This document shows positions 4,328-25,955 of a stretch of 64,000 nt of DNA, in pieces (position 1 is the first letter of the stretch; the number at the start of each line of letters is the position of its first letter). Both the position numbers and the translations under genes were made by a program. Source of the stretch: Kangiellaceae bacterium (GTDB taxonomy: Bacteria; Pseudomonadota; Gammaproteobacteria; Enterobacterales; Kangiellaceae); contig JAPHTP010000072.1 in the NCBI GenBank assembly GCA_026196875.1, forward strand, positions 52,412-116,411, in the 5' to 3' direction. Under the pieces are notes generated by a model that saw only the letters and a program-made list of their open reading frames with translations, was not told where the DNA came from and ran no database searches.

Positions 4328-6040
4328 TTATTTTCGATGCACGTGATAAATATTCAGCCAGTCACCAGCTCTTTTGTTACCTATCGCTTTGGTTAACTGC
4401 CCTTTTTGGGGATAAAAAACAAACTCACTCGTTTCTTGTTCAGCGTAGTGCTTAACTTTTTCAGAAACCACAATATCACCAGCTTCCGCCATGGCTTCTA
4501 ATCTCGCCGCCATACTAACAGCACTACCTTCCAAATCAGATTGATTGGTCACTTCGTTATGTACTATGCTGACTTGCCCTAAATCAATTCCAATCCGCAA
4601 TTCATATTCTGCAGCCATTAATACGTCCCTTATCATGCAAGCACATTCAACTGCGGCTTTAGCGCTACGAAAAGTCGCTCGTAAAGAATCTCCTTCCATA
4701 TTAGGATAGCTGGCTTTCCATCTTTGTAGGATTGGTTTAAGTAACCCTCTGAACAAAGATAGCTTTTCGGAAACAACACCTTCGCTCCATTGGGTGAAAT
4801 CCTTTAAATCGATAAAAATAACCGAAAAGTTTCTAACTTGATCAATTTCATGCTCCGCCGCTAACTCAAGCAAGCGAGGCCAGAACTGCTCCTTGATACC
4901 TGCCACAGCCTCTTTCAATTTCTTTTGCATATTGCGATCAGATCGTAAGGCAAGCTGAGCATACTGAATTCTACTAGCCTCCTCTTTGAGAGATATTTCT
5001 AACTCGTTTAGAGAGTAATTTCCGGATTCCTCGACCACCAAACACACCATTGCCCCGCCAGCAATGTCTTTTACTGATTTAAGCCTCAGTGCAACGCCCC
5101 AGTGGCAAGCTTGCAAGTGTTCTATCAGTATAGGTAAAGTCGCAATTTCGTTGGCGGTTAAACGAAAGTCATATTTCAACTCAATAACTAATGACTCAGC
5201 ATATATTCGTTCGAATTCATTGGCCTGATATTCCGTTTTGAGAGTCCCATCTCTATCCCAACACGCTGCCAAGCAAATGATGTTTCTGATATCCCACCCG
5301 ATTGTCTCGGCATTAAAGAGTTTGGCATTGGTAATATTTGCCCGATTTAGCTTAGAACCGGATAAATCACAATCCCTAAAATCACATCCCTTTAAAATTG
5401 CCCCGTCGAAATTAAGCTTCTTAAGGCTCATACTTGAGAAATCGACATTTGAAAGGTTACTTCCTTTAAACTGCGTATCCTTGATTTCAGCATTGTTCAA
5501 CAGGCAATCAGACAGGTTTGCCCCATTTAAAATAGCTTTTGATAGGTTAGCACCGCGCAGATCGACTCTTTTCAGGCTAGCGTTAGTCATATCTTTACCC
5601 GCCAAATTCTGCTCTCTTAAGTCACAGAGGTCGAGGGTAATTCCGATTAGATTGAAACTTTGTAAGTCAACTTTAGTAAGTTCTGAATTAATAATCGACG
5701 TGTCGTCAATAACCGCAGTTAGCAAATTAACTTCTTTAAAATTGCACTTCTTAAATTCCGCAGATGTAAGATTGCTTGCTATCAACTTGGCGGACTCAAA
5801 GTCACACCCATCAAAGCTTGAGTGGCTTAGATCGGCTGAAATCAGGTTAGTATTACGAAAGTAGCAACCATCAAAATAGCAACCCACTAAATGGACATTT
5901 GAAAAATCGAGACCAGAGAAGTCAAGATCCTTAAATTCAAGATCTTCAATTACGATCTCACGTTTGCCGTGAGAATCTCTCCAACGTTGCCAGTTTTCTG
6001 GTTTAGTAAAAAAGCCGGGATCCGTTAAAACCTGGCTCAT
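4328..6040 (-). CDS. Pentapeptide-repeat protein fused to class III adenylate/guanylate cyclase-like domain
   Basis: 570 residues, soluble. Residues about 35-245 are tandem pentapeptide repeats of the A(D/N)Lxx type (for example LDFSGLDFSNVHL, LRGANLSKAILNGANL), which fold as a right-handed quadrilateral beta-helix. Residues 280-390 are an unassigned linker domain. Residues 403-555 match the class III nucleotidyl cyclase catalytic domain: metal-binding Asp411 in FIDLKDFT, Asp451 in MEGDSLRATF, and the strand LRIGIDLGQV. Two canonical residues differ: the substrate Lys of KxxGD is Asn447, and the Asn of VNxAAR is Ser509 (VSMAAR), while Arg513 is kept. It may therefore have altered specificity or weak activity. 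First gene of a probable operon with the TolB-like gene. Confidence 0.8.
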   Translation of the reverse strand: MSQVLTDPGFFTKPENWQRWRDSHGKREIVIEDLEFKDLDFSGLDFSNVHLVGCYFDGCYFRNTNLISADLSHSSFDGCDFESAKLIASNLTSAEFKKCNFKEVNLLTAVIDDTSIINSELTKVDLQSFNLIGITLDLCDLREQNLAGKDMTNASLKRVDLRGANLSKAILNGANLSDCLLNNAEIKDTQFKGSNLSNVDFSSMSLKKLNFDGAILKGCDFRDCDLSGSKLNRANITNAKLFNAETIGWDIRNIICLAACWDRDGTLKTEYQANEFERIYAESLVIELKYDFRLTANEIATLPILIEHLQACHWGVALRLKSVKDIAGGAMVCLVVEESGNYSLNELEISLKEEASRIQYAQLALRSDRNMQKKLKEAVAGIKEQFWPRLLELAAEHEIDQVRNFSVIFIDLKDFTQWSEGVVSEKLSLFRGLLKPILQRWKASYPNMEGDSLRATFRSAKAAVECACMIRDVLMAAEYELRIGIDLGQVSIVHNEVTNQSDLEGSAVSMAARLEAMAEAGDIVVSEKVKHYAEQETSEFVFYPQKGQLTKAIGNKRAGDWLNIYHVHRK

Positions 6041-6152
6041 TGTGCATTCCAGTCTTGCATGTTTTTTCCAACCCGTTAATCGCTTTATTATTTGCGCGGT
6101 TATTATTCGATTGTAATTTTAATTAGCTCATTCGGCATTTTAAGTATGCATC

Positions 6153-6191
6153 CTAGGCTAATTCTTCGATTTTAATCGAATCTTGGCCTAG
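6153..6191. promoter_or_regulatory. Nested inverted repeats in divergent intergenic region
   Basis: The 303-bp gap 6041-6343 separates the divergent cyclase and AhpD-like genes and contains no gene. Inside it an outer pair CTAGGC (6153-6158)/GCCTAG (6186-6191) surrounds an inner perfect pair TTCGAT (6165-6170)/ATCGAA (6175-6180) with a TTTA loop. No U-tract follows, so an operator or cruciform is more likely than a terminator. No regulator can be named. Confidence 0.35.
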
Positions 6192-6343
6192 ATACCATGC
6201 TGATTGTCGAAATTAATCCAGAGACTTCAACCACCTATACAGTTTTCGAGCCCAATCAACACAATTAGGATATTGAGTTTATTCTTTCGTTAGTTATGAT
6301 AAAAACAGTTTGAGACCATCGAATATAGGATCGTAAAAAACTT

Positions 6344-6721
6344 ATGTCACATCCATTTGAAGAATTCAGAGAAAAGCGCCAACAAGGAAATGAAAGGCTT
6401 TTAGACACCAAAAATTTGGTTACAAAGCGCTTTGTTTCTCTAGATAAACAAGCATACAGTGATGGTGCCTTACCAGCGGAAACTAAAGAGTTAATGGCTT
6501 TAACTGCATCAATGGTTTTAAGATGTAATGATTGTATCGACTATCACTTGGAAACAACGGTAAAGCTAGGATTTAACCGCGAGCAAATCGACGAAGCTAT
6601 TGGTATAGCAATGCTCGTAGGCGGCTCTATAGTAATCCCGCACGCTCGCCATGCAGCTCAGAGCTTGGACTTTCTGTTTGCCGAAAAATCCAAGTTTGAC
6701 AAAAGCAACGAAGATGAATAA
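6344..6721 (+). CDS. Carboxymuconolactone decarboxylase/AhpD-like family protein
   Basis: 125 residues, cytosolic. The core carries the AhpD-type redox motif CNDC (within MVLRCNDCIDYHLETTVKLGF) followed by the helical segment with the conserved His of the family (YHLE). Proteins with this motif act as alkylhydroperoxidase-like thiol oxidoreductases; the decarboxylase label is only the family name. It stands alone on the plus strand, and its stop codon is immediately adjacent to the uvrB stop codon on the other strand (6721/6722), so the two genes converge with no spacer and no visible terminator. Substrate unknown. Confidence 0.85.
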   Translation: MSHPFEEFREKRQQGNERLLDTKNLVTKRFVSLDKQAYSDGALPAETKELMALTASMVLRCNDCIDYHLETTVKLGFNREQIDEAIGIAMLVGGSIVIPHARHAAQSLDFLFAEKSKFDKSNEDE

Positions 6722-8719
6722 TTATTTAAACAGCTGCTCTCGTAATTCAGCAATCTGATCTCGGTATTTAGCCGCTAGTTCAAACTCAAGATTTTTAGCG
6801 GCTTCCAGCATCGCTTTTTCGAGTCTAGCTATTGATTTTCCAGCGTCGTTAGCTGTCTCAACAGAGTATTTTGCAGATGGTTCTGCAGTTTTTCTTTTTG
6901 ATTTCTTAGATTCTTTGTCCCTACCGGACTGCATAATGTCACTAATTTTCTTAGACACACCTTTAGGTGTAATTCCGTTTTCAACATTAAAATCGTGTTG
7001 GATTTGACGACGGCGGTTGGTCTCTCCAATTGCTCTTTCCATTGAGCCAGTGATTCTATCGGCATATAAGATGGCTTTCCCAGATAAGTTTCTTGCTGCG
7101 CGGCCAATAGTCTGAATTAGTGAACGTTCTGAGCGTAAAAACCCTTCTTTGTCAGAATCCAGGATAGCCACTAACGAGACTTCAGGCATATCTAATCCTT
7201 CTCGTAAGAGATTAATTCCCACTAGCGCATCAAACTCTCCTTTACGCAGATCTCGGATAATTTCCATGCGTTCCACGGTATCTATATCGGAGTGTAAATA
7301 CCTAACTCTGGTCCCATGTTCATTTAGGTACTCAGTAAGATCTTCAGCCATACGTTTAGTTAGTGTAGTAACCAATACCCTTTCACTTTTAGCTGCTCTT
7401 TCGGTAATTTCCGAAAGTAAATCGTCAACTTGGGTAGCAACAGGCCTAACTTCAACTTCGGGATCGAGTAAACCAGTTGGTCTCACTACCTGTTCAACTA
7501 TTGCACCAGAGTGCTCTTTTTCGTAGTTGGCAGGTGTGGCAGAGACAAAAATTGTTTGAGGGGCCAATTTCTCGAACTCTTCAAACTTTAGCGGTCTGTT
7601 ATCTAACGCTGATGGAAGTCTGAATCCATACTCCACCAAAGTCTCCTTACGCGAGCGATCGCCTTTATACATTGCACCTATTTGAGACACCATGACATGT
7701 GACTCATCAATAACCAATAATGCGTCCGCCGGTAAATAATCTAACAAGGTTGGCGGATGTTCGCCGGGGTTTCTTCCTGATAAAAACCGCGAATAGTTTT
7801 CGATACCGGAGCAATATCCCAGTTCTTGCATCATTTCGATATCAAACCGAACTCTTTGCTCTAATCGCTGGTGCTCAATCAATTTATTATTTTCTTTAAG
7901 GTGTATTAAACGATCAGCAAGTTCAACCTTTATCTTTTCAATAGCATCCAACAAAGTTTGTCGGGCTGTTACGTAATGAGATTTTGGATAAATAGTTACC
8001 CGAGATAATTTTTTAATTACTTCACCTGTAAGCGGATCAAAACTACTCAGAGAATCTACTTCGTCATCAAACAATTCGATTCTTATCGCATACCGGTCTG
8101 ACTCTGCAGGAAAAATATCGATAACATCCCCTCTTACCCTATAAGTTGCCCGCTGCAACTCCATATCATTACGCGTAAATTGTAGTTCAGCTAACTTTCT
8201 TAAAATTGTTCGCTGATCGACGGTGTCACCTGGCTTTAGATGCATAACCATTGAGTGAAATTGCTTAGGATCCCCCAGACCGTATATAGCAGATACCGAT
8301 GCGACTATTATGGCATCCCTGCGTTCTAGTAATGCTCTGGTCGCTGAAAGTCTCATTTGTTCTATATGGTCATTAATAGATGCATCTTTCTCAATAAAAG
8401 TATCGCTGCTAGGTACATATGCTTCCGGCTGATAATAGTCATAATAGGACACAAAATACTCAACCGCGTTATTGGGGAAAAACTCTTTCATCTCTCCATA
8501 AAGCTGCGCTGCAAGGGTTTTGTTCGGTGCAAGCACGATTGTTGGCCGGCCTGTCTGTTGAACCACATTTGCTACTGTGAATGTTTTCCCAGAACCGGTA
8601 ACACCAAGCAAAGTCTGGTGAGACAAGCCATCAGATAAACCCTCGATGAGTTGCTGAATTGCTTTTGGTTGGTCTCCGGCGGGCTTAAACGCGGAGTTAA
8701 GTGCAAATTTATCGACCAT
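6722..8719 (-). CDS. uvrB: UvrABC excinuclease subunit B
   Basis: 665 residues, normal for the family. UvrB is the damage-verifying helicase-like subunit of nucleotide excision repair: it is loaded by UvrA and then recruits UvrC. Walker A is GVTGSGKT (about residues 39-46); the beta-hairpin region contains [12 protein letters not shown]; helicase motifs [19 protein letters not shown] and QTIGRAARN follow; the C-terminal UVR domain (about 625-660) is the UvrC-binding motif with [17 protein letters not shown]. The start ATG at 8717-8719 gives the standard N-terminus ([17 protein letters not shown]). No LexA box was recognised by eye in the 250 bp upstream, which lead to tRNA-Asn. Confidence 0.98.
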
Positions 8720-15709: not shown

Positions 15710-16801
15710 TTAACCGTGAGTTCGCTTAAATTCCTGCATAAACTCAGTTAGTGCAATAACGCCTTCAATAGGCATAGAATTATATGCGCTAGCTCTCATT
15801 CCGCCTACGCTGCGATGACCTTTGAGACCAGATAAGCCGTTTTCTTCAGCTAACTTAAGGAATTTAGCGTTTAGTGAATCATCCTTTAATATAAAAGGTA
15901 TATTCATTAAAGAACGACAAGAAACTTCGATGGGATTGGTATAAAAATCATCTTGATCGATACACCCGTATAGCTTTTCAGCTCTTTCGAGTGCACGTTT
16001 ATTCATTTCTTTAACGCCACCGTTCTCTAGCAACCACTCAAATACCAAACTTGCTAAATACCAAGTGTATGTGGGTGGAGTGTTAACCATTGAACCTTGT
16101 GCGGACTGAACTGAATAGTTAAAGACTTTAGGAACATGACTAAAATCCATTTGTTCCATTAGCGACTTTTTAATGATAACAATTGTCATCCCCGCAGGAC
16201 CGATATTCTTTTGCGCCCCCGCGTATATCATATCGTAATCATTAACGTTAATTTCTTCTGACAAAATGCAGGACGACATATCGGCGATTATTGGCCCAGT
16301 ACTCTTTGGTAGCCAGTTATAGCGTATCCCTTCGATCGTTTCGTTCGGAGTAAAATGTGTGTATGAAGGATTTTCCGTGCGATTCCATTCAGACTCAGAC
16401 ACCAATGACCGAATTCCATCCATTCCAATATGCATCGCATCAATCAGGTTTACGCTGCCATATCGAGCTGCTTCCTGGCTTGCTTTTCCAGACCACATAC
16501 CATTTTGAATATATTCAGCTTCTTTTCCTTCGCCCAAAAGACACATTGGAATGTTGGCAAATTGGAGCGAGGCCCCGCCATGCATAAATAAAACAGCATG
16601 CTCATCGCCAATTCCCATTAAAGATCTGAGATCTGATTCAGCCTTGTTAGCGAGTTCTTGGTATTGCGACGAACGATGGCTGATTTCCATTACCGATACG
16701 CCCGTCCCCTTCCAGTTAAGGAATTCTCGTTGGGCTTGTTCCATAACAGGAACCGGCAGGGCTGCCGGCCCTGCACAGAAATTATAAACAGGATTACTCA
16801 T
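15710..16801 (-). CDS. serC: Phosphoserine aminotransferase
   Basis: 363 residues from the ATG at 16799-16801 ([16 protein letters not shown], the standard N-terminus). The open frame extends upstream to 16954, but the extra 51 residues lie inside gyrA and are low-complexity, so the internal start is preferred. SerC is a PLP enzyme of serine and pyridoxal phosphate synthesis; the PLP Lys lies in [12 protein letters not shown]. The start overlaps the gyrA stop by 8 bp, indicating translational coupling. Confidence 0.97.
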
Positions 16802-19472
16802 CAGATGCTTCTTGGTCTGTATCTTGATCTTTTGATTCATTTGAGGAGTCAACAGTGTCGGCAGACTCAGTAGCTTCACCTTCGGTTTGACTAGACCCCT
16901 CTGCTTCGGAAGAACCTTCGGACTCTTCGGCTTCGTCATCGGTTTCCAGTTCATCTATTCGCTGTAAACCAACTAAAGTTTCCCCGTCTTGAAGTCGTAT
17001 TAGGCGCACACCCTGGGTGTTTCTACCCATAGTTCGAATTTCATCAACTCGAGTTCGAACAAGCGTTCCGCCTTTACTGATCAACATAATCTCGTCGCCG
17101 TCAGCAACACGTACTGCGCTGATAGCCTTACCATTTCTTTCACTTAAGGTAATAGAGATAACACCTTGTCCACCACGGCCTCTTACCGGGTGCTCAGTCA
17201 TACAAGTTCTCTTACCATACCCATTTTCTGTCACTGTAAGGATCTGGCTGTCATTATCTGCACGCACCAACGCGATAACTCTTTGTTCCTCGCCAATCCG
17301 CATACCACGAACCCCACGAGCAGTACGTCCCATCTGGCGAACATTTTCTTCATGGAACCGAATAACTTTACCTGCATCGCTAAATAACATGAGATGATCG
17401 CTTCCATCAGTTACTACAGTTCCGATTAAATCATCACCTTCGTCAAGGCGTAACGCGATGATTCCATTTGAACGAGGACGCGAGAAAGCTTCGAGTGAAG
17501 TTTTCTTAACCGTGCCATTGGCGGTTGCCATAAATACGTAATGGTCTTCATCAAACTCTTTAACATTAAGAATCGATGTAATTCTTTCTCCTTCTTGAAG
17601 CGGCAATATATTAACTATTGGCTTGCCCTGAGAACCTCGGCTTGCAAGTGGAAGTTCAAATGTTCGCAACCAGTAGACCTTACCAATACTAGAGAAACAG
17701 AGAATCGTAGCATGTGTCGAAACAACAAGTAGTCTTTCAATGAAATCTTCATCTTTCATCTTAGTAGCGGACTTACCTTTACCACCCCGACGTTGTGCTT
17801 CATAGGAAGAAAGCGGTTGATATTTCACGTAGCCCTGGTGAGATAGTGTTACTACTACATCTTCTTCAGGGATCAAATCCTCTATTAATAGATCCGCTGA
17901 ACTATTAGTAATCTCGGTGCGTCTTTCATCTCCAAAGTTATCCTGAACTTCAATGAGTTCTTCACGAATAACTTCCATAAGCCTCTCAGTACTGCCGAGA
18001 ATTGCTAATAACTCACTAATAAGTGCGATTAAATCTTTGTAATCATTTATGATTTTCTCGTGTTCAAGACCTGTTAACTTGTGCAATCGCAAATCAAGAA
18101 TTGCTTGGGCTTGAACTGGAGAAAGGTGATACAAACCATCTTTTAAGCCATATTGCTCTTCAAGATCATCAGGACGACAAGCGTCAGCTCCAGCACCTTC
18201 CAACATACTTAACACAGCACTCGCATCCCAACCTTTGGCTACTAGCTGCTCTTTGGCTACAGCGGGAGTTGGTGCTTTTTTGATCAGCTCAATTATTTCG
18301 TCGATGTTTGCTAATGCAATTGCTAACCCTTCAAGAACGTGGGCTTTTTCTCTCGCCTTGCGCAAATCAAACACCGTACGACGAGTCACTACTTCACGAC
18401 GATGACGGATGAATGCTTCAAGCATTTCCTTTAAGGTGAATAACTTTGGTTGACCATTTTCGAGTGCAACCATGTTAATACCAAATACGGTTTGCATCTG
18501 CGATTGAGCGTAGAGGTTATTCATAATAACTTCAGAGTTCTCACCACGGCGAAGCTCAATCACCATACGCATACCGTCTTTATCAGATTCGTCCCTCAGT
18601 CCCGTGATCCCGTCAATTTTCTTTTCTTTAACTAGCTCTGCAATTTTTTCGATAAGTCGAGCTTTATTGACCTGATAAGGAAGTTCTGTAACGACGATGC
18701 TCTCTTTACCATTTTTATCATCGGTCTCGATATGATGACGTGCTCTGATGTAAATACGCCCACGACCCGTTGTATAGGCTTGAATGATTCCAGCTCGGCC
18801 ATTGATAATCCCTTGAGTAGGAAAGTCAGGGCCCGGTATATGTTCCATCAATCCGGCAACATCGATTTCTGGCTCATCCATCACAGCCAAACAAGCGTTG
18901 ATAACTTCAGTGAGATTATGTGGAGCAATATTGGTCGCCATGCCAACCGCAATACCGGCGGAGCCGTTAACCAATAAGCTAGGAACTCGAGTTGGAAGAA
19001 CAGTTGGCTCAGTTTCAGAACCATCATAGTTTTCAGCCCAGTCGACGGTTTCTTTTTCTAAGTCGGATAAGAGTTGATGCGCCATCTTGTCCATTCGGAC
19101 TTCGGTATAACGCATTGCTGCTGGAGAATCGCCGTCAACTGAACCAAAGTTACCTTGACCGTCGACCAACATATAACGAAGTGAAAATGGCTGAGCCATA
19201 CGCACGATAGTGTCGTAAACAGCAGTATCACCATGCGGGTGGTATTTACCTATTACATCCCCAACAACACGAGCAGATTTTTTGTATGCCTTGTTATAGT
19301 CATTGCCCAGTTCATTCATAGCGTATAAAACACGACGATGAACCGGCTTTAAACCATCTCGGACATCGGGCAAAGCACGCCCAACGATAACGCTCATTGC
19401 GTAATCTAAATATGAAACTTTTAGTTCGTCTTCAATGTTGATTGGCAGGACTTCTTTAGCAAACTCACCCAT
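16794..19472 (-). CDS. gyrA: DNA gyrase subunit A
   Basis: 892 residues. Catalytic Tyr122 lies in [10 protein letters not shown]. The quinolone-resistance region reads [15 protein letters not shown], with Thr83 and Asp87 in E. coli numbering; Thr83 is a natural variant also found in Pseudomonas and not by itself a resistance mutation. The C-terminal beta-pinwheel carries the GyrA-box (QRRGGKGK). The extreme C-terminus, about 50 residues, is a highly acidic Ser/Glu/Asp tail. It is the first gene of the serC-cmk block; the 302 bp upstream (19473-19774) hold no gene. Confidence 0.98.
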
Positions 19473-19774: not shown

Positions 19775-21508
19775 TTACTCTTTTGGCTGTACTACAACTT
19801 GATTACGTCCTCGTCGCTTGGCCAAATACATTGCCTCATCTGCTTGAGCAACCAAATCCTTTAGCTCATATCCAGTTCCTTGAGTATTTGCAATTCCAAA
19901 GCTTGCACTTACGTTAAAGTCAAAACCTGAATCACTAGTGTCGATTTCAGTTATTCGAAGTCTACACTCCTCAGCGACCTTAACTGCCTGGTCGATTTCA
20001 CAACCCGGGAGTAAAATTGCGAATTCTTCACCGCCAACACGACCAATAATATCAATTTTTCTTATGTTTAAGTTGCAGACGTTTGCAGCTTCTTTTAGTA
20101 CAAAATCCCCTGCAGGGTGGCCATAGGAATCATTAATTTTCTTAAAGTGATCTAAGTCGAATAGTATCAAACTCACTTCTCTGTCTGATTTGACCATCAG
20201 ATTAAGAGCAGCTTCAGCACTTTGAGTAAAGTGTGCCCTATTACAAATTCCGGTCAAACTGTCATACTCAGCTAAATACTTAAGCTTCCGTTGTGCTTTA
20301 CGAATATAAACGGTCCAGGCGACTAAGAGAGTTACGCAGACAACGAGTAAACCAATAACCCAACGGTTGTACATAGCGGTTTCTTCAGATAGTTCCTTCT
20401 CCAACTTCAAAATCTGATTCTGCTTGTTAAGCGAGTCTATTTTGGCATCTTTTTCAGCAGATTGTCGTTTAGCGGACTCGACAGCCAGTTGGCGGCCATT
20501 AATTTCTTCAAAATGCTTCTTTTCGGCATCAAAATATGATTTTAAATAACTAATCGCTTCGCCCAACTGATTATTTTGCAAGGAAATTTTATGCAAAATA
20601 TTGTAAGCATTTGCAATAGGCTTAATATCTTTTACTACTTTCTCCAACTCAATCGTAAGTAGAGCATATCTTTTAGAGTCTTGATGATTATTCTGAGTAA
20701 AGTAGGCGCTAGATAAAAGAGAGTAAAACTCAATAATTAATAATTGGTAATTAGTTTGCTCAACAGTACTAATATTATCTTTCAACAACTCTAGCGCCTT
20801 AATCGAATCGCCATTCTCAAGGTAGTAATGCGCCAGATGGGCTCGAATAACATTGGATAAAATGATTTCCTTAGTTGCATCGCATGCTTCAATTGCTTCT
20901 TTAATATGTGAAATAGACTCAATCTCTTGATTCAATCTAAGTTGCGATTTGAAATACAAACCTCTGGCCAAACACAAGTTTCTTCCATCCTGGCTCTCAT
21001 TTAAGACATTTTTTACAAAGTCTAAAGTAACCGAATGATATTCAATTTCATCGTAAAAAATTGCGACGGCAATTAATCCTTGATGCCTGATATTTGGATC
21101 GGAAATTGACTCTCTATGTTTATCTATATATGAAATGTACTTAAGGCCATCAGCCCACTCGCGTTTAAACGCAGTTACATTCACAAGCGATAGAGCTGTA
21201 CGGTATTTCAGCACTGTATCCCTGGTATTATCAAACACGTGCCGGTAGTTCTTTTCGGCAGCGTTTAAATCACCTTTTAGAGCTTTTTCATAACCTTTTA
21301 AATATAGAAAGTAGTACTTCTCGAGAATCGATAATGAATCAAATTCCGACTCTAACCCAGACAAAATTTGAACAAATTTCGCTCCATCAGCAGACTTAAG
21401 CTTGTCCGCTAACTCTAGGCGAGCTTTAGCCGTTGGAGGTTCTTGCGCTAAAATTGAACAGCAGAAAACTATGCTAGTAATTACCAGCAAATATTTTAAA
21501 GCCTTCAT
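19775..21508 (-). CDS. Membrane diguanylate cyclase with TPR-like sensor region
   Basis: 577 residues: signal peptide (residues 1-21), a periplasmic helical region with TPR-like repeats (about 30-350), a coiled coil (about 345-380), one membrane helix (WVIGLLVVCVTLLVAWTVYI, about 383-402) and a C-terminal GGDEF domain. The active motif is GGEEF at 492-496, with an inhibitory site RKID at 483-486 placed five residues before it, so product inhibition is likely. It makes c-di-GMP from GTP. It starts 24 bp after the borosin precursor stop on the same strand and could belong to that operon, although it might have its own promoter. Confidence 0.92.
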   Translation of the reverse strand: MKALKYLLVITSIVFCCSILAQEPPTAKARLELADKLKSADGAKFVQILSGLESEFDSLSILEKYYFLYLKGYEKALKGDLNAAEKNYRHVFDNTRDTVLKYRTALSLVNVTAFKREWADGLKYISYIDKHRESISDPNIRHQGLIAVAIFYDEIEYHSVTLDFVKNVLNESQDGRNLCLARGLYFKSQLRLNQEIESISHIKEAIEACDATKEIILSNVIRAHLAHYYLENGDSIKALELLKDNISTVEQTNYQLLIIEFYSLLSSAYFTQNNHQDSKRYALLTIELEKVVKDIKPIANAYNILHKISLQNNQLGEAISYLKSYFDAEKKHFEEINGRQLAVESAKRQSAEKDAKIDSLNKQNQILKLEKELSEETAMYNRWVIGLLVVCVTLLVAWTVYIRKAQRKLKYLAEYDSLTGICNRAHFTQSAEAALNLMVKSDREVSLILFDLDHFKKINDSYGHPAGDFVLKEAANVCNLNIRKIDIIGRVGGEEFAILLPGCEIDQAVKVAEECRLRITEIDTSDSGFDFNVSASFGIANTQGTGYELKDLVAQADEAMYLAKRRGRNQVVVQPKE

Positions 21509-21532: not shown

Positions 21533-21820
21533 CTAGAAACTGACAGCTCCTAGCTGACTTTTTTCTTCGGATTCATCCTCTTTTTCTTTCTCATCATTTG
21601 AATTGTCATCTTCTTCCTCTTTTGCCGGAACTAAGAAACAAATGATTTTATGTTGATCTTCCATGAGGCCTTCTAGTGCACCTTGATCCCTATTAAGAAT
21701 CGCCTCAATTTCAATATTAGATAATCCGCTTTCCTTCGCAATTTTGTCAACATAAAATTCGGTATCGCCAAAATCAGGAAAACAAGCAAGGTTTTCTAAT
21801 ACATCTAGTAATTTGTTCAT
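21533..21820 (-). CDS. Putative split-borosin precursor peptide
   Basis: 95 residues from the ATG at 21818-21820, chosen because AAGGA stands about 8 bases before it; an upstream in-frame ATG (21844) has a poorer site. Residues 1-55 are helical and include GLSNIEIEAILNRD (32-45) followed by ALEGL. This resembles, as I recall it, the borosin-binding domain of the Shewanella precursor SonA (GLTDEQINAVMTGD). Next comes a hydrophobic segment KIICFLVP (58-65), the likely core, then an acidic low-complexity stretch (67-87) and the end SQLGAVSF. It lies just downstream of a borosin-type methyltransferase. In borosins the methyltransferase N-methylates backbone amides of the core. Modified positions are unknown. 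Confidence 0.75.
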   Translation of the reverse strand: MNKLLDVLENLACFPDFGDTEFYVDKIAKESGLSNIEIEAILNRDQGALEGLMEDQHKIICFLVPAKEEEDDNSNDEKEKEDESEEKSQLGAVSF

Positions 21821-21897
21821 TTTATGATTCCTTGAAGCAAGCATTTTAGATAATTCCCAGATGATACGTTAAAATCACTAAAAATCAAAGAGTTAGT

Positions 21898-22674
21898 TCA
21901 TTTCAAGCGATTTTCGACCGATTTATTGATTTCGAGCTCTCTCGCAGGTGGAATTACCAGCGTAGAGTGACCGTTCAACTCCAACTTAGTGATATCTTTT
22001 AATGCCACAGTTTCGATACGTTTGCTGTTCACCGGCAGTGTCTGCGCTTCATAGACTATGACCTGGTGATCAAGTGGGTACCACTTACTTAGTAACTCTA
22101 CAAGGATGGAAAGATTATCAAGGTTTGAAGAATTTTTGGTAAAGGAGAGATCGCCCGCTACGCTAATCTGCCAAAGTATCAAATAAGCACTACTATCAAC
22201 TTGGCGTGAATAGATCATAAACTGGGTTGCTTCATACTGCTGACACCCGAATTTGCCTGGATCGATCCCTAAATCAGCATATAAGCAATCTTCAGCTGAA
22301 ATTCCGGGCTCCATTTTTGCGTAAATTCCATCCTGCCTGAGTTCCTCAATTGCTTTGTGAGCTACCAGCGCAAACACTCCAGGATGCCCGTAAAGAGCCA
22401 AGCATACATTTTTGCCTATTTTTACTTCCTCAACTATTGCAACAACCATTTGAGAATAGGTTTTATTTCTTGAAAACGACTCAGAATAAAAATGCTGCAA
22501 ATTCCTTACATCACTATTCATCTCCCTTATCCAAGCTTCCGTCAAGTGACTCGTTACCGACATAAAAACCACGTCAGCCTTTTCGATATACTGACGTGAA
22601 ATTGGGGTAATGTGTGCCCCCATCATAATCCCAGTACCAACGCAAACTAGGGAACCTTTGTTATTTGAATTCAA
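21898..22674 (-). CDS. Borosin-type alpha-N-methyltransferase (split, TP-methylase fold)
   Basis: 258 residues of the tetrapyrrole methylase fold. The N-terminal SAM-binding loop is VCVGTGIMMGAHIT; the LYGHPGVF motif (94-101) and EPGISAEDCLYADLGIDPG (122-140) are typical of the borosin branch. Tyr63, Arg69, Tyr73 and Tyr95 have the spacing 6-4-22, identical to catalytic Tyr66, Arg72, Tyr76 and Tyr98 that I recall for OphMA. The protein lacks the fused precursor of fungal borosins, so it belongs to the split type (SonM-like), in which a separate precursor is methylated iteratively on backbone amides. The precursor gene follows after 77 bp. A true cobalamin/siroheme methylase is unlikely in this context. 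Confidence 0.88.
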   Translation of the reverse strand: MNSNNKGSLVCVGTGIMMGAHITPISRQYIEKADVVFMSVTSHLTEAWIREMNSDVRNLQHFYSESFSRNKTYSQMVVAIVEEVKIGKNVCLALYGHPGVFALVAHKAIEELRQDGIYAKMEPGISAEDCLYADLGIDPGKFGCQQYEATQFMIYSRQVDSSAYLILWQISVAGDLSFTKNSSNLDNLSILVELLSKWYPLDHQVIVYEAQTLPVNSKRIETVALKDITKLELNGHSTLVIPPARELEINKSVENRLK

Positions 22675-22684
22675 TGAGCTTTCC

Positions 22685-23191
22685 TTACCAGAATTGCCAG
22701 TTTTCTTTTAAAATTGTTCCTTTTAATACACCATCTGCAGTTTCATCTTCAAAATTGACACCGATTGAAATACACCCTATGTATGCAGCTTTATTTGCCT
22801 TAGCAATTTTAAATTTTATCTCTATTAATTCAGTATTGCTAAATAAATGATTGAGAAGAATTATTGCAGTCTCTCTTCCCGCGCCTTTTGCAAATTGTTT
22901 GGAAAGAAACAAAAAACCTACTTCCGCTTGTTTTGCATTAGGTGCATAGCTGGCACCTATAAATCCGAATTTATCTATCGAGTTCATATAGCGAACAGAA
23001 AAGTAGTTTTCTTTCTTTGAATTGAGCACCCTGTGGAAGTTTACGGTAATTTGAGGCTCGGAAAACTCTCCTACAAACCTTGAACTCCTCGGGCAGGTAA
23101 AAATTGCTCGATACAACTCATAATCGCCCGCTCCAACCTTTTCAAATACATAATTTTGTTGAGGTGGAATATTGATTAAATCACTACTCAA
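22685..23191 (-). CDS. GNAT-family N-acetyltransferase in the borosin cluster
   Basis: 168 residues with the GNAT fold of the RimJ/RimL type. The acetyl-CoA loop is KQFAKGAGRETAIIL (about 116-130), followed by the typical AKANKAAYIG segment. It overlaps the protease gene by 4 bp (ATGA) and is 10 bp before the methyltransferase, so it is in the same transcript. It could acetylate the precursor (N-terminus or Lys) or provide self-protection; neither is shown. No signal peptide, so cytosolic. Confidence 0.85.
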   Translation of the reverse strand: MSSDLINIPPQQNYVFEKVGAGDYELYRAIFTCPRSSRFVGEFSEPQITVNFHRVLNSKKENYFSVRYMNSIDKFGFIGASYAPNAKQAEVGFLFLSKQFAKGAGRETAIILLNHLFSNTELIEIKFKIAKANKAAYIGCISIGVNFEDETADGVLKGTILKENWQFW

Positions 23192-24456
23192 CTCTTAGCC
23201 TTAGCGAATTTCATATCCCCAAACTCATTCTCAAACCGAGCAAAAATCACATAGTAACCCGACATCAAAGGTAATCCCAAAATAGATTGATCAGGCCAAC
23301 CTGGAAGCTGAGAAATAATTTTAAATGAAACTTGCCCGTGCAGGGGAGCATTAGTCTGCCAGTAATCTTGAGGTCGACAAATTAAACTAACCTCATCTTC
23401 TTCGCTATCAGCTGAAGCTTCAAAAATAAATTCTATATTTGGCCATTCTCCTAAATCAACTTGATTGATATCAATACCTTCCTCTTTATATTCAAATGAC
23501 AAAAATGGCTCTAAAATCTTTTTGAACTTCGGATCGATTTTCTCAAAGCAGTCGACAATATAGTTAAAAACGACATTGTCTAGTACTATTCCAGTAGCCC
23601 CAGTGTCCATGAACGCGTTTGAACCATACTTTTTCAGCTTATCTCCTTCTAAAAGCGGTGCATCAAAAGCGGCAAAACCGTCTACTTTGACTTTAACTAA
23701 TCTGACATTGTAGTAAACGTCATCAATAACTTTAATGCGAGTAAACTCTCCTTCATAAAGATCTTTGTCTTCCTCTCCGCCTCCCAATATAAACAGCCCC
23801 TGATTCAGGGCATCTTGTTTTAGTTGTTCTTTTGACAAGTCAGGTTGCGCATGGTGAATACTTGATCGATGAGTAACAAACGAAAATTTATTCGCAGAAA
23901 CACCGTGTCGTTCTAGCTGGGTAAAATAAGGCTTTAACTCACTTTTTGGATAGTTTTTAACCAACTTTCTAAAGTCGTTGACCGTTTGCTTTTCAATTTG
24001 TGTATTTGTCCAGGGATAAGTAACTTGAGGATCTATTTTCTGCTGCTGCAAATAGTTTTTCAAACAAAACGCATCATTCAATTCATAGAATGCTAAGCCT
24101 AGTATCCCATCCGCCTCCGCAAACATACCTTGCTGAAATTCAGCCGCGATAGAAACGTAAGCATTATCGAGAAGCATTTTGCCATCATGAGTGAGCATAT
24201 CAACACCTGTTTGCACCACAGGTCCATACCAGCCCCCCATTCCATACCGCACATACTGTGCATAGGTTGTGGGCTGCAACTCCCTATCTACTTGAGCTTC
24301 ATAGGCCGATTTAGTAACAACCAACGTGCTGCTTCCAGTATCTAAAACTAGTTCGGCGGTATCAGTTTCGCTTCCAAAACTAACCGTTACCGAAAAGCCA
24401 CCTCTCGCATAGACGTTGGTGATAGGCATCCTTAAGGTTTTTCGACTCGAATCCAT
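23188..24456 (-). CDS. Cytosolic pepsin-like aspartic protease (family A1, shewasin-like)
   Basis: 422 residues, bilobal pepsin architecture. The first catalytic motif is DTGSS at residues 39-43 (VLDTGSSTLVVT); the flap tyrosine region follows (YVRYGMGGWYG); DGILGLA at 116-122 is the family hallmark; the second catalytic motif is DTGAT at 284-288; the C-terminal strand is ILGLPLMSGYYVIFARFEN. There is no signal peptide or propeptide, as in the cytosolic bacterial pepsin homologues (shewasins) known from Shewanella. Such proteases are rare in bacteria. It is the first gene of the cluster, overlapping the acetyltransferase by 4 bp, so removal of the borosin leader is a reasonable hypothesis. 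Confidence 0.88.
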   Translation of the reverse strand: MDSSRKTLRMPITNVYARGGFSVTVSFGSETDTAELVLDTGSSTLVVTKSAYEAQVDRELQPTTYAQYVRYGMGGWYGPVVQTGVDMLTHDGKMLLDNAYVSIAAEFQQGMFAEADGILGLAFYELNDAFCLKNYLQQQKIDPQVTYPWTNTQIEKQTVNDFRKLVKNYPKSELKPYFTQLERHGVSANKFSFVTHRSSIHHAQPDLSKEQLKQDALNQGLFILGGGEEDKDLYEGEFTRIKVIDDVYYNVRLVKVKVDGFAAFDAPLLEGDKLKKYGSNAFMDTGATGIVLDNVVFNYIVDCFEKIDPKFKKILEPFLSFEYKEEGIDINQVDLGEWPNIEFIFEASADSEEDEVSLICRPQDYWQTNAPLHGQVSFKIISQLPGWPDQSILGLPLMSGYYVIFARFENEFGDMKFAKAKS

Positions 24457-24608
24457 TTTTCCACACCTTTTTAAGCAATCTTTATTAAGTTAACTTTCAT
24501 TTCAATCAGCTCTACCCTGCTAATTGTCATAGGTCATGATTTTTACTTTAGCGCTTTACCAAAAGCAGGTAAAATATCAGCCACTTAGCGTAGGTGCAAC
24601 TTTCTTAA

Positions 24609-25955
24609 GTGAATTCGATGGACAACAATTCTGAATTACCTCAAGTTGATCAAATAATAACCGCAGATTGGTTAATACCAATGACCGAAGAAGATCTTTG
24701 GCTGGACGATTTCGGAATTGCCATCAAAGGAAAGAAAATAGTTGATCTTGTAGCTAAAGATAAGGTGGCTGAAAAATATCCTGAAGTTAAACACCTTCAT
24801 CTTGAAGGGCAGGTATTAATGCCAGGATTTATAAATAGCCACTGTCATGCCGCAATGAACTTACTTCGTGGGCTTTCTGATGATTTGCCTTTGATGGAAT
24901 GGCTGGAAAAAGCGATCTGGCCTGTCGAAGCTAAATTTGTCGACGACAATTTCGTCTATCAAGGCACACAGCACGCAATTGCCGAAATGCTTCTTTCAGG
25001 CACGACTTGTTTCCAAGATATGTATTTTATGCCCAACCAGGCGGCCAAAGCGGTACAAGACTCAGGCATAAGAGCTTCTATCGGAATGGTAATTGTAGAA
25101 TTCCAAACGGCTTGGGCGCAAAACGCACAAGACTGTATCGATAAAGGGCTAGAAGTCTTTGATCAGTTTAAACATAGCAGCGCAATTTGCTTTAATTTCG
25201 CACCACACGCTCCATATACGGTCGCCAAAGAGACACTTGAGAAAGTCAGCATGCTCTCAAATGAGCTCAATGTTCCAGTTCAAATCCACGTCCACGAAAC
25301 AGAATTTGAAGTAGAATCATTTATTAAAGAGCATGGCATACGCCCTCTCACTCGACTGAAAGAAATTGGATTGCTTTCCCCTTTGTTAAACGCGGTGCAT
25401 ATGACCCAACTTAACGAAGGTGAAATTGACTGGTTGGCCGAGTCTGGTAGCCACGTCATCCATTGCCCCCAATCTAATATGAAACTGGCAAGTGGCGTTT
25501 GCCCTACTCTGCAATTAATGCAAGCCGGTGTTAATTTGGCAATTGGTACTGACGGCGCAGCGAGCAACAACGATCTAGATATGATTGATGAACTCAGATC
25601 GGCTTCACTTTTATCTAAACTGGATTATTTAGACCCCACTTCAATGACGGCGTATCAGTCACTCTATGCAGCAACTATGGGTGGCGCCAAAGCGCTCGGT
25701 CTACAAGATAAAATAGGATCACTCGAGAAAGGTAAAAGAGCTGACTTTATCGCGATTGATTTAAATCGCATTGAAACCCAGCCCGTTTATAATCCTGTAT
25801 CTCAAATCGCTTATGCTAGCTCTAGGGATCAAGTTAGCAACGTGTGGGTTAATGGCAAACAACTACTGAAAAACCGCCAACTGACTACCCTTAATTCGGA
25901 ATTAATATTAAGCAATACGCAACAATGGCGAAAAAAAATTAGACCTATCGACTAA
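24609..25955 (+). CDS. mtaD: 5-methylthioadenosine/S-adenosylhomocysteine deaminase-like amidohydrolase
   Basis: 448 residues from a GTG; an ATG at 24618 (MDNNSELPQVDQI) is an equally likely start. Metal-dependent hydrolase fold: NSHCHAAMNLLRG supplies two metal His, HVHETEFEVE the next, and GTDGAASNNDLDM the catalytic Asp. Family members deaminate MTA or SAH to the inosine form. The adjacent ubiG and HAD phosphatase reproduce the Pseudomonas order PA3170-PA3171-PA3172. The 152 bp separating it from the divergent protease must contain the promoters of both. Confidence 0.9.
   Translation: MNSMDNNSELPQVDQIITADWLIPMTEEDLWLDDFGIAIKGKKIVDLVAKDKVAEKYPEVKHLHLEGQVLMPGFINSHCHAAMNLLRGLSDDLPLMEWLEKAIWPVEAKFVDDNFVYQGTQHAIAEMLLSGTTCFQDMYFMPNQAAKAVQDSGIRASIGMVIVEFQTAWAQNAQDCIDKGLEVFDQFKHSSAICFNFAPHAPYTVAKETLEKVSMLSNELNVPVQIHVHETEFEVESFIKEHGIRPLTRLKEIGLLSPLLNAVHMTQLNEGEIDWLAESGSHVIHCPQSNMKLASGVCPTLQLMQAGVNLAIGTDGAASNNDLDMIDELRSASLLSKLDYLDPTSMTAYQSLYAATMGGAKALGLQDKIGSLEKGKRADFIAIDLNRIETQPVYNPVSQIAYASSRDQVSNVWVNGKQLLKNRQLTTLNSELILSNTQQWRKKIRPID

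What the first reader, a model, noticed from the sequence alone, without database searches (positions are those of the whole stretch)
21533..24456. Split-borosin RiPP cluster with a pepsin-like protease and an acetyltransferase
Four tightly packed minus-strand genes: aspartic protease, GNAT (4-bp overlap), borosin-type methyltransferase (10-bp gap), precursor. The methyltransferase has the Tyr-Arg-Tyr-Tyr set at 63/69/73/95, the exact spacing I recall for OphMA (66/72/76/98). Seen directly: gene order and residues. Known: split borosins (SonM/SonA) methylate backbone amides of a separate precursor. Inferred: the protease releases the product and the acetyltransferase adds a second modification. 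I know of no described borosin pathway with this set.
Basis: partly seen in the sequence, partly recalled or inferred. Interest (0 to 1): 0.93.

Follow-up and report, generated by a model that had tools for sequence, protein, structure and literature searches.

The report
Pepsin-processed methylated peptide with receptor
Five tightly packed bacterial genes encode a pepsin-like protease, an acetyltransferase-family enzyme, a peptide-backbone methyltransferase, its small precursor peptide and a predicted membrane sensor; together they likely make a methylated peptide that would act as a chemical signal, which would give the bacterial relatives of stomach pepsin, whose job has been unknown, a predicted function.

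Summary
The four genes are as described, and the methyltransferase is a split-borosin enzyme (SonM 267 bits, best corrin methylase 25; Tyr63/Arg69/Tyr73/Tyr95 invariant in 18 sequences). The finding stops one gene short: 24 bases downstream lies a fifth same-strand gene with signal peptide, TPR domain, transmembrane stretch and GGDEF cyclase. Of 145 fetched borosin methyltransferase genes, 138 have such a TPR sensor within 2.5 kb on the same strand, SonM/SonA-type clusters included. Its output changes (GGDEF, histidine kinase, hybrid kinase) while the TPR part stays, and its modelled fold resembles Rap, NprR and PlcR peptide receptors, among other TPR proteins. The protease belongs to the bacterial pepsins (shewasins), of unknown function: the four Shewanella pepsin genes tabulated in 2009 stand in the same gene order, and 39 of 40 Shewanella pepsin loci have GNAT and methyltransferase beside them. 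I propose a predicted operon for an N-methylated peptide signal: methylation, release by the cytosolic pepsin, capping by the GNAT, sensing by the TPR receptor. Every reaction, export and sensing are inferred; shewasins' acid pH optimum speaks against simple cytosolic cleavage. Three borosin papers are not held, so parts may be in print.

The parts
23188..24456 (-). pepsin-like aspartic protease (peptidase family A1, shewasin group), 422 aa, first gene of the block
   Evidence: Pfam PF00026 E 1.6e-12; D39, Y71, D284 kept in all 135 homologue sequences compared, 113 distinct; 38% and 37% identical to shewasin D and shewasin A
22685..23191 (-). GNAT-family N-acyltransferase, 168 aa, TTG start, overlaps the protease gene by 4 bp
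   Evidence: PF13302 E 2.2e-5, 25.6 bits against a cut-off of 25.4; AlphaFold2 model pLDDT 93.3 with GNAT structures as matches, including a lasso-peptide acetyltransferase 9iy3
21898..22674 (-). split-borosin peptide alpha-N-methyltransferase, 258 aa, TTG start
   Evidence: SonM chain 267 bits E 1.3e-78; Y63/R69/Y73/Y95 invariant in 18 sequences
21533..21820 (-). precursor peptide, 95 aa: borosin-binding domain (about residues 1-52), predicted core around KIICFLVPA (58-66), acidic follower, short hydrophobic C-terminus
   Evidence: family found beside the MT in 116 of 126 loci, overlapping sets; profile of 18 such precursors matches SonA chains; core placed by alignment with SonA-type precursors
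19775..21508 (-). predicted membrane sensor, 577 aa: signal peptide, TPR superhelix, transmembrane helix, GGDEF diguanylate cyclase (GGEEF with RKID I-site)
   Evidence: PF00990 E 3.3e-42 at 413-570; TPR model pLDDT 90.7; motif and hydropathy; 24 bp after the precursor stop
24457..24608 (.). 152-bp divergent intergenic region upstream of the block, likely to hold its promoter
   Evidence: gene layout; the pattern scan lists no promoter-like site inside it and is not above shuffles overall

Best explanation
Five tightly packed same-strand genes, a predicted operon, likely make a backbone-N-methylated peptide signal together with its own membrane receptor. Steps: (1) the methyltransferase is predicted to bind the borosin-binding domain of the precursor and methylate backbone amides in the core around KIICFLVPA; (2) the pepsin-like protease, predicted cytosolic like shewasin D, would cut the precursor to free the core from leader and acidic follower; (3) the GNAT would acylate the released peptide, most simply its new N-terminus; (4) the small, hydrophobic, N-methylated product would cross the membrane without a dedicated transporter, since none is encoded in the block; (5) the periplasmic TPR domain of the fifth protein would bind it, in the manner of Rap, NprR and PlcR receptors, and change the activity of the cytoplasmic GGDEF domain and so the c-di-GMP level. 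Shown: gene order, families, conservation, swapping of the output domain. Predicted: folds and topology. Inferred: every reaction, the export and the ligand.
For: MT and precursor. Pepsin: 40 of 129 Shewanella genomes have a homologue; 39 of the 40 loci have GNAT and MT beside it on one strand, the fortieth being cut by a contig end after the GNAT. These include Sama_0787 (shewasin A), Sden_0804 (shewasin D), Shew_2996 and Ssed_3567, matched base for base to coordinates in PMC2761423. Order level: pepsin in 38 of 394 genomes, MT in 95 of 394, all 38 pepsin genomes among them. Genome level in the fetched set: 66 of 69 pepsin genomes have GNAT beside an MT and an acidic precursor (the other three: the window's own genome, whose own locus was not in that count, and two fragmented assemblies), against 5 of 41 genomes without pepsin. 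Shewasin D is active, mainly cytosolic and of unknown role (PMC4814920, passages). Receptor: TPR-sensor gene within 2.5 kb on the same strand of 138 of 145 fetched MTs; of 72 sensor-profile hits of 120 bits or more in 61 genomes, 66 lie within 3 kb of an MT against about 0.2% expected. Output domains differ: GGDEF, HisKA-HATPase, hybrid kinase, none. 140 adjacent precursor-sensor pairs, median gap 5 bp. Colwellia-type arrays of 2-3 pairs: best precursor match agrees with best sensor match in 29 of 39 comparisons, 17 by chance. Precursor distance follows sensor distance after GGDEF distance is removed (partial r 0.42, permutation p 0.001). TPR model: Rap, NprR and PlcR with peptides among the best solved matches.
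Against: No chemistry, ligand or phenotype was seen. Shewasin D works best at pH 3.5-4.0 and loses 70% of activity at pH 5; shewasin A showed none at pH 6 (PMC4814920, passages), which does not suit plain cleavage in the cytosol. TPR folds resemble one another; APPBP2, LGN and APC/C subunits also head the lists. The pepsin is not essential: five genomes have GNAT beside an MT with an acidic precursor and no detected pepsin (G048, G091, G272, G324, G340), G086 and G348 have the GNAT without an acidic precursor by the cut-off used, G006 and G208 the acidic precursor without a GNAT (G006 and G048 are 82% and 85% complete). 36 of 80 named pepsin loci have no MT beside them, and 7 of those 36 genomes none at all. 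Co-occurrence counts are not corrected for kinship; the Kangiella contrast (11 of 11 against 0 of 7) is one clade split on a proxy tree. The reverse partial correlation, precursor with GGDEF, is weaker but also p 0.001 (0.14). 5 of 165 sensors, that of S. denitrificans among them, lack the GG[DE]EF motif. SonM-type clusters have the receptor but neither pepsin nor GNAT. No exporter is encoded in the block.
Confidence: 0.55

Rival explanations
1. The product is an antimicrobial or other secreted natural product, and the TPR-GGDEF or TPR-kinase protein is a regulator or self-protection sensor that tunes production or biofilm state when the product accumulates.
For: Regulators commonly sit in biosynthetic clusters (general knowledge); the sensor output varies (GGDEF, kinases).
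Against: No exporter or recognisable immunity gene in the block. The sensor is more constant than GNAT: 138 against 76 of 145 MTs. Precursor-sensor pairs are repeated as units beside one or two methyltransferases in Colwellia-type arrays, which fits ligand and receptor better.
Confidence: 0.22
2. The pepsin-like protease is a general cytosolic stress protease that shares a promoter with the borosin genes and does not process the precursor.
For: Shewasins have broad hydrophobic specificity and an acid pH optimum, and a role in pH homeostasis or stress was suggested (PMC4814920, passages); 7 of 36 genomes with a lone pepsin have no MT.
Against: Pepsin-GNAT-MT is kept in 39 of 40 Shewanella loci. 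73 of 80 named pepsin genomes have an MT in the locus or elsewhere, one of them only a 222-bit match in an 823-aa frame, against 95 of 394 genomes in the order. In G235 the pepsin is cut to 104 aa and the sensor gene is absent together.
Confidence: 0.15
3. A plain split-borosin cluster: protease and GNAT are tailoring enzymes, and the neighbouring GGDEF gene is unrelated.
For: MT, precursor, protease and GNAT alone would make a product.
Against: 66 of 72 strong sensor-profile hits lie within 3 kb of an MT; adjacency in 138 of 145 fetched MTs with median precursor-sensor gaps of 3-5 bp.
Confidence: 0.08

Closest known systems
Type IV split borosin SonM/SonA of Shewanella oneidensis (PMC8429565; abstract, one section and passages read)
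   Same: Discrete methyltransferase of the same family, separate precursor with a borosin-binding domain, conserved Tyr/Arg/Tyr/Tyr; SonM-type loci examined here also carry a neighbouring TPR-GGDEF gene.
   Different: SonM-type clusters examined have no pepsin and no GNAT beside them, and the precursors found there end right after the core, without an acidic follower.
Shewasin A and shewasin D, bacterial pepsins (PMC4814920, PMC2761423; passages read)
   Same: Same family: 37-38% identity, same catalytic residues, spacing equal to shewasin A, no signal peptide; those two genes themselves stand first in pepsin-GNAT-MT gene orders.
   Different: The words operon, methyltransferase and acetyltransferase do not occur in either main text; here the genes are tied to borosin precursors.
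RRNPP peptide-pheromone receptors (Rap, NprR, PlcR; family name recalled, structures)
   Same: TPR superhelix of similar size; small peptide gene directly beside the receptor gene (the latter recalled for RRNPP).
   Different: RRNPP receptors are cytosolic with DNA-binding or phosphatase-type effectors (recalled); here the TPR part is predicted periplasmic on a membrane protein with GGDEF or kinase output.
RcbB of Vibrio vulnificus (PMC12282931, passages read)
   Same: TPR domain in front of a GGDEF domain; the TPR domain represses the cyclase.
   Different: Its partner is a second TPR protein, RcbA, not a peptide.
Selidamide GNATs (PMC9505594, passages read) and lasso-peptide acetyltransferase 9iy3 (structure title)
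   Same: GNAT enzymes that acylate ribosomal peptides.
   Different: Other peptide classes; donor and acceptor here unknown.

Membership tests
Split borosin (type IV-like) | methyltransferase of the borosin alpha-N-methyltransferase family with the catalytic Tyr/Arg/Tyr/Tyr set | tested here: met
   SonM 267 bits, OphMA about 151 bits, precorrin-2 methylase 24.6 bits; residues invariant in 18 sequences
Split borosin (type IV-like) | methyltransferase and precursor encoded as separate proteins | tested here: met
   258-aa and 95-aa genes, 77 bp apart
Split borosin (type IV-like) | precursor with a borosin-binding domain | tested here: met
   profile of 18 precursors without SonA-like rows: SonA chains are the best 7 PDB matches, E 0.0018-0.0035, profile residues 1-50; the window precursor alone finds none
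Split borosin (type IV-like) | backbone alpha-N-methylation of the core | not testable with these tools
   needs mass spectrometry
Peptidase family A1 (shewasin group) | two catalytic Asp motifs and the flap Tyr | tested here: met
   D39, Y71, D284 kept in 135 of 135 homologue sequences, 113 distinct; PF00026
Peptidase family A1 (shewasin group) | no signal peptide, cytosolic | tested here: met
   no signal peptide by hydropathy in 132 of 136; cytosolic localisation itself shown only for shewasin D in print
Peptidase family A1 (shewasin group) | proteolytic activity, pepstatin-sensitive | not testable with these tools
   -
GNAT superfamily | GNAT fold | tested here: met
   model pLDDT 93.3, pTM 0.86; PDB matches are GNATs, 14-21% identity in the first five
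GNAT superfamily | acyl donor and peptide acceptor | not testable with these tools
   -
Membrane TPR-diguanylate cyclase | signal peptide, TPR domain, transmembrane helix, active-type GGDEF motif | tested here: met
   window: GGEEF with RKID, TPR model, GGDEF Pfam; relatives of 540-670 aa: hydrophobic N-terminus 162 of 165, GG[DE]EF 160 of 165, transmembrane stretch 157 of 160
RRNPP peptide receptors | TPR fold | tested here: met
RRNPP peptide receptors | cytosolic receptor with RRNPP effector domain | tested here: not met
   predicted periplasmic TPR with GGDEF or kinase output: works like, not a member

The most novel reading that the evidence does not exclude
Bacterial split borosins are peptide pheromones: backbone-N-methylated signals, each encoded beside its own TPR receptor with a swappable c-di-GMP or phosphorelay output, and the bacterial pepsins are their maturation proteases. 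This would be a Gram-negative peptide-signalling system in which N-methylation serves membrane passage and stability.
Probability: 0.48. Interest if true: 0.95.

Novelty: new variant of a known kind. Interest (0 to 1): 0.87.

Why it matters
Two open questions become testable with existing reagents. Bacterial pepsins were described in 2009 and the 2016 shewasin D paper still calls for their task to be uncovered; here their genes stand in a borosin gene order, so recombinant shewasin can be tried on a named substrate family. Bacterial borosins have no established biological role as far as I recall; a conserved receptor-like neighbour with varying output suggests they are signals. If true, it adds an aspartic protease to RiPP maturation: a 2023 review of RiPP leader proteases has no occurrence of aspartic, aspartyl or pepsin in its main text (PMC10885120, text search). 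It would also add a chemistry and a receptor class to Gram-negative peptide signalling.

Tried and rejected
Corrin or siroheme methylase identity: rejected. Window precursor alone against PDB: only chance matches; the profile of relatives was needed. Plasmid-borne spread of the protease: no match in the plasmid collection. Promoter patterns: 19 found, 15.5 by shuffles; terminators 7 against 4.3: uninformative. GNAT single-sequence search: 6 of 61 genomes, a miss through divergence; a profile finds it in 43 of 44 named pepsin loci that have an MT. Kangiella contrast as independent support: weakened, because pepsin-free genomes group together on a methyltransferase proxy tree. Predicting an exact cleavage site from shewasin preferences: left out, because several bonds in the core fit and N-methylation would change them. 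Methyltransferase tree, 125 of 183 rows after thinning at 85% identity: the GNAT-linked label needs 7 changes and the pepsin-linked label 12, so these enzymes are clustered but not one clade. The named list is the best 80 of 103 relatives; the other 23 were not examined. The 145 methyltransferases are those in loci I fetched, not every one found.

Literature limits: Imani 2022, Crone 2023 and Cho 2022 are not held; a later borosin survey is recalled and was not looked up. Neighbourhood genes may be mentioned there. Searches that listed no paper joining borosin with pepsin, GNAT or TPR/GGDEF (listings only, several capped to the top rows). Of the 32 papers that hold the word borosin (30 listed) I looked into five by passages.

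Full report
1. Observation. The methyltransferase matches SonM over residues 7-253 at 267 bits, OphMA at about 151 bits and the best corrin methylase at 25 bits. Tyr63, Arg69, Tyr73 and Tyr95 align with SonM residues discussed in PMC8429565 and never vary in an alignment of 18 methyltransferases.

2. The missing gene. The finding ends at 21533. At 21508 on the same strand begins a 577-aa protein with a hydrophobic N-terminus, a TPR region, a transmembrane stretch and a GGDEF domain with GGEEF and an RKID inhibitory-site motif. A gyrA-like gene follows after 302 bp (name recalled from its sequence). So the block is five genes, pepsin-GNAT-MT-precursor-sensor, on one strand with gaps of -4, 10, 77 and 24 bp.

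3. The protease is a bacterial pepsin of the shewasin group. Its two catalytic Asp and the flap Tyr are at 39, 284 and 71, the same spacing as shewasin A (37, 282, 69; PMC2761423 table), and identity to shewasins D and A is 38% and 37%. A scan of one genome per species gave 80 named loci, the best of 103. By local profiles 44 of the 80 have a borosin MT in the locus, 46 a GNAT, 46 a precursor, 49 a sensor gene, and 41 all four. Of the 36 genomes whose pepsin locus lacks an MT, 29 have a match elsewhere (one of them, G515, only 222 bits in an 823-aa frame). The seven without are five MAGs labelled Acidobacteria (2), Planctomycetales (1) and Bacteroidetes/Chitinophagaceae (2), one gammaproteobacterial MAG, and one Colwellia MAG whose pepsin contig does carry a precursor and sensor.

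4. Shewanella. 40 of 129 genomes have the pepsin, and 112 of 129, all 40 included, a borosin MT. I fetched all 40 pepsin loci: 39 show pepsin, GNAT and MT on one strand, and one stops at a contig end after the GNAT. In one the pepsin is split into two frames (L208), and in one it is cut to 104 aa (L231). By exact coordinates four of these are the published pepsin genes of S. denitrificans (shewasin D), S. amazonensis (shewasin A), S. sediminis and S. loihica. Shewasin D was found active and mainly cytosolic, with its function left open. Its optimum is pH 3.5-4.0, and shewasin A showed no activity at pH 6: a real difficulty for cleavage in the cytosol unless the natural substrate behaves differently.

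5. Co-occurrence. At order level pepsin occurs in 38 of 394 genomes and MT in 95 of 394; all 38 pepsin genomes have an MT (Fisher 3.8e-27, not corrected for kinship). In the fetched set 66 of 69 pepsin genomes have GNAT beside an MT plus an acidic precursor; the exceptions are the window's own genome, whose own locus was not in that count, and two fragmented assemblies (G007, G018). Of 41 genomes without pepsin, 32 have neither trait, 5 both, 2 only the GNAT, 2 only the acidic precursor. In Kangiella the pepsin gene lies apart from the MT; all 11 genomes with it have a GNAT-MT-acidic-precursor cluster and none of 7 without it do. On a proxy tree this is a split between clades, so it counts as one contrast.

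6. Precursors. A precursor family was found beside the MT in 116 of 126 loci (overlapping sets). Pepsin/GNAT-type precursors have a borosin-binding domain, typically a core of the form IVCxxxPAEDDE and an acidic follower with a short hydrophobic end. SonM-type precursors stop just after the core. A profile from 18 pepsin-type precursors, with no SonA-like row, gives the seven SonA chain sequences as its best PDB matches (E 0.0018-0.0035). With SonA-like rows added the E-value is 5e-22, which is partly circular.

8. Ligand-receptor pairing. 140 adjacent precursor-sensor pairs have a median gap of 5 bp (overlapping sets). Six Colwellia-type loci hold 2-3 pairs; across them the nearest precursor and the nearest sensor point to the same partner in 29 of 39 comparisons, 17 by chance (comparisons not independent). 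Over 122 distinct pairs precursor distance follows sensor distance with GGDEF distance held fixed (partial r 0.42, p 0.001); the reverse is weaker (0.14, also p 0.001). Shared descent contributes to both.

9. GNAT. Divergent in sequence (6 of 61 genomes by single-sequence search) but present in 43 of the 44 named pepsin loci that have an MT. The model (pLDDT 93.3) matches GNATs, among them a lasso-peptide acetyltransferase (9iy3). Acetyl or longer acyl transfer is open; selidamide GNATs transfer fatty acyl groups (PMC9505594).

10. Reading. Methylation, release by the pepsin, capping and sensing by the TPR protein make one consistent pathway, with N-methylation offering a reason why no exporter is encoded. 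All of it beyond gene content is inferred. Against it: the acid optimum of shewasins, clusters with GNAT and acidic precursor but no detected pepsin, lone pepsins without MT, the breadth of TPR fold matches and the lack of any phenotype.

11. Known and new. Split borosins, shewasins, GNATs in RiPPs and TPR-regulated GGDEF proteins are each known. I found no held paper that joins them (searches in Tried and rejected), but three central borosin papers could not be read.

Noticed in passing
L297 (G000:C5) and L298 (G000:C79): The window's genome has two further borosin loci, each with an MT, a small precursor-like gene and a TPR sensor with a histidine-kinase output instead of GGDEF.
   Followed up: partly
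L231 (genome G235), 5033-7565: Pepsin gene cut to 104 aa and sensor gene missing, while GNAT, MT and two precursors remain: looks like joint decay of protease and receptor.
   Followed up: partly
L252, L253, L256, L257, L260: GNAT, MT, precursor and TPR sensor in genomes with no detected pepsin; another protease may do the job.
   Followed up: no
L086, L095, L106, L124, L133: Pepsin homologues in MAGs labelled Acidobacteria, Planctomycetales and Bacteroidetes without any borosin MT match: transfer, binning error or another role.
   Followed up: no
L062, L065, L066, L067, L069, L076: Colwellia-type arrays of two or three precursor-sensor pairs sharing one or two methyltransferases.
   Followed up: partly
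L105, L111, L118, L121: In four Kangiella-type loci a sensor-profile match of 136-178 bits lies 5-8 kb from a lone pepsin gene, with no MT in the stretch.
   Followed up: no
L192, 8262-10124: The sensor beside the shewasin D gene has a Pfam GGDEF domain without the GG[DE]EF motif, so its cyclase may be inactive.
   Followed up: partly
window 24609-25955 and 16794-19472; L057 6508-17649: The block sits between an amidohydrolase-like gene and gyrA (names recalled from sequence); the same neighbours flank the cluster in Aliikangiella marina.
   Followed up: no
L275, L278, L279: Kangiella MT loci with tandem TPR-only proteins of about 355 aa and no output domain.
   Followed up: partly
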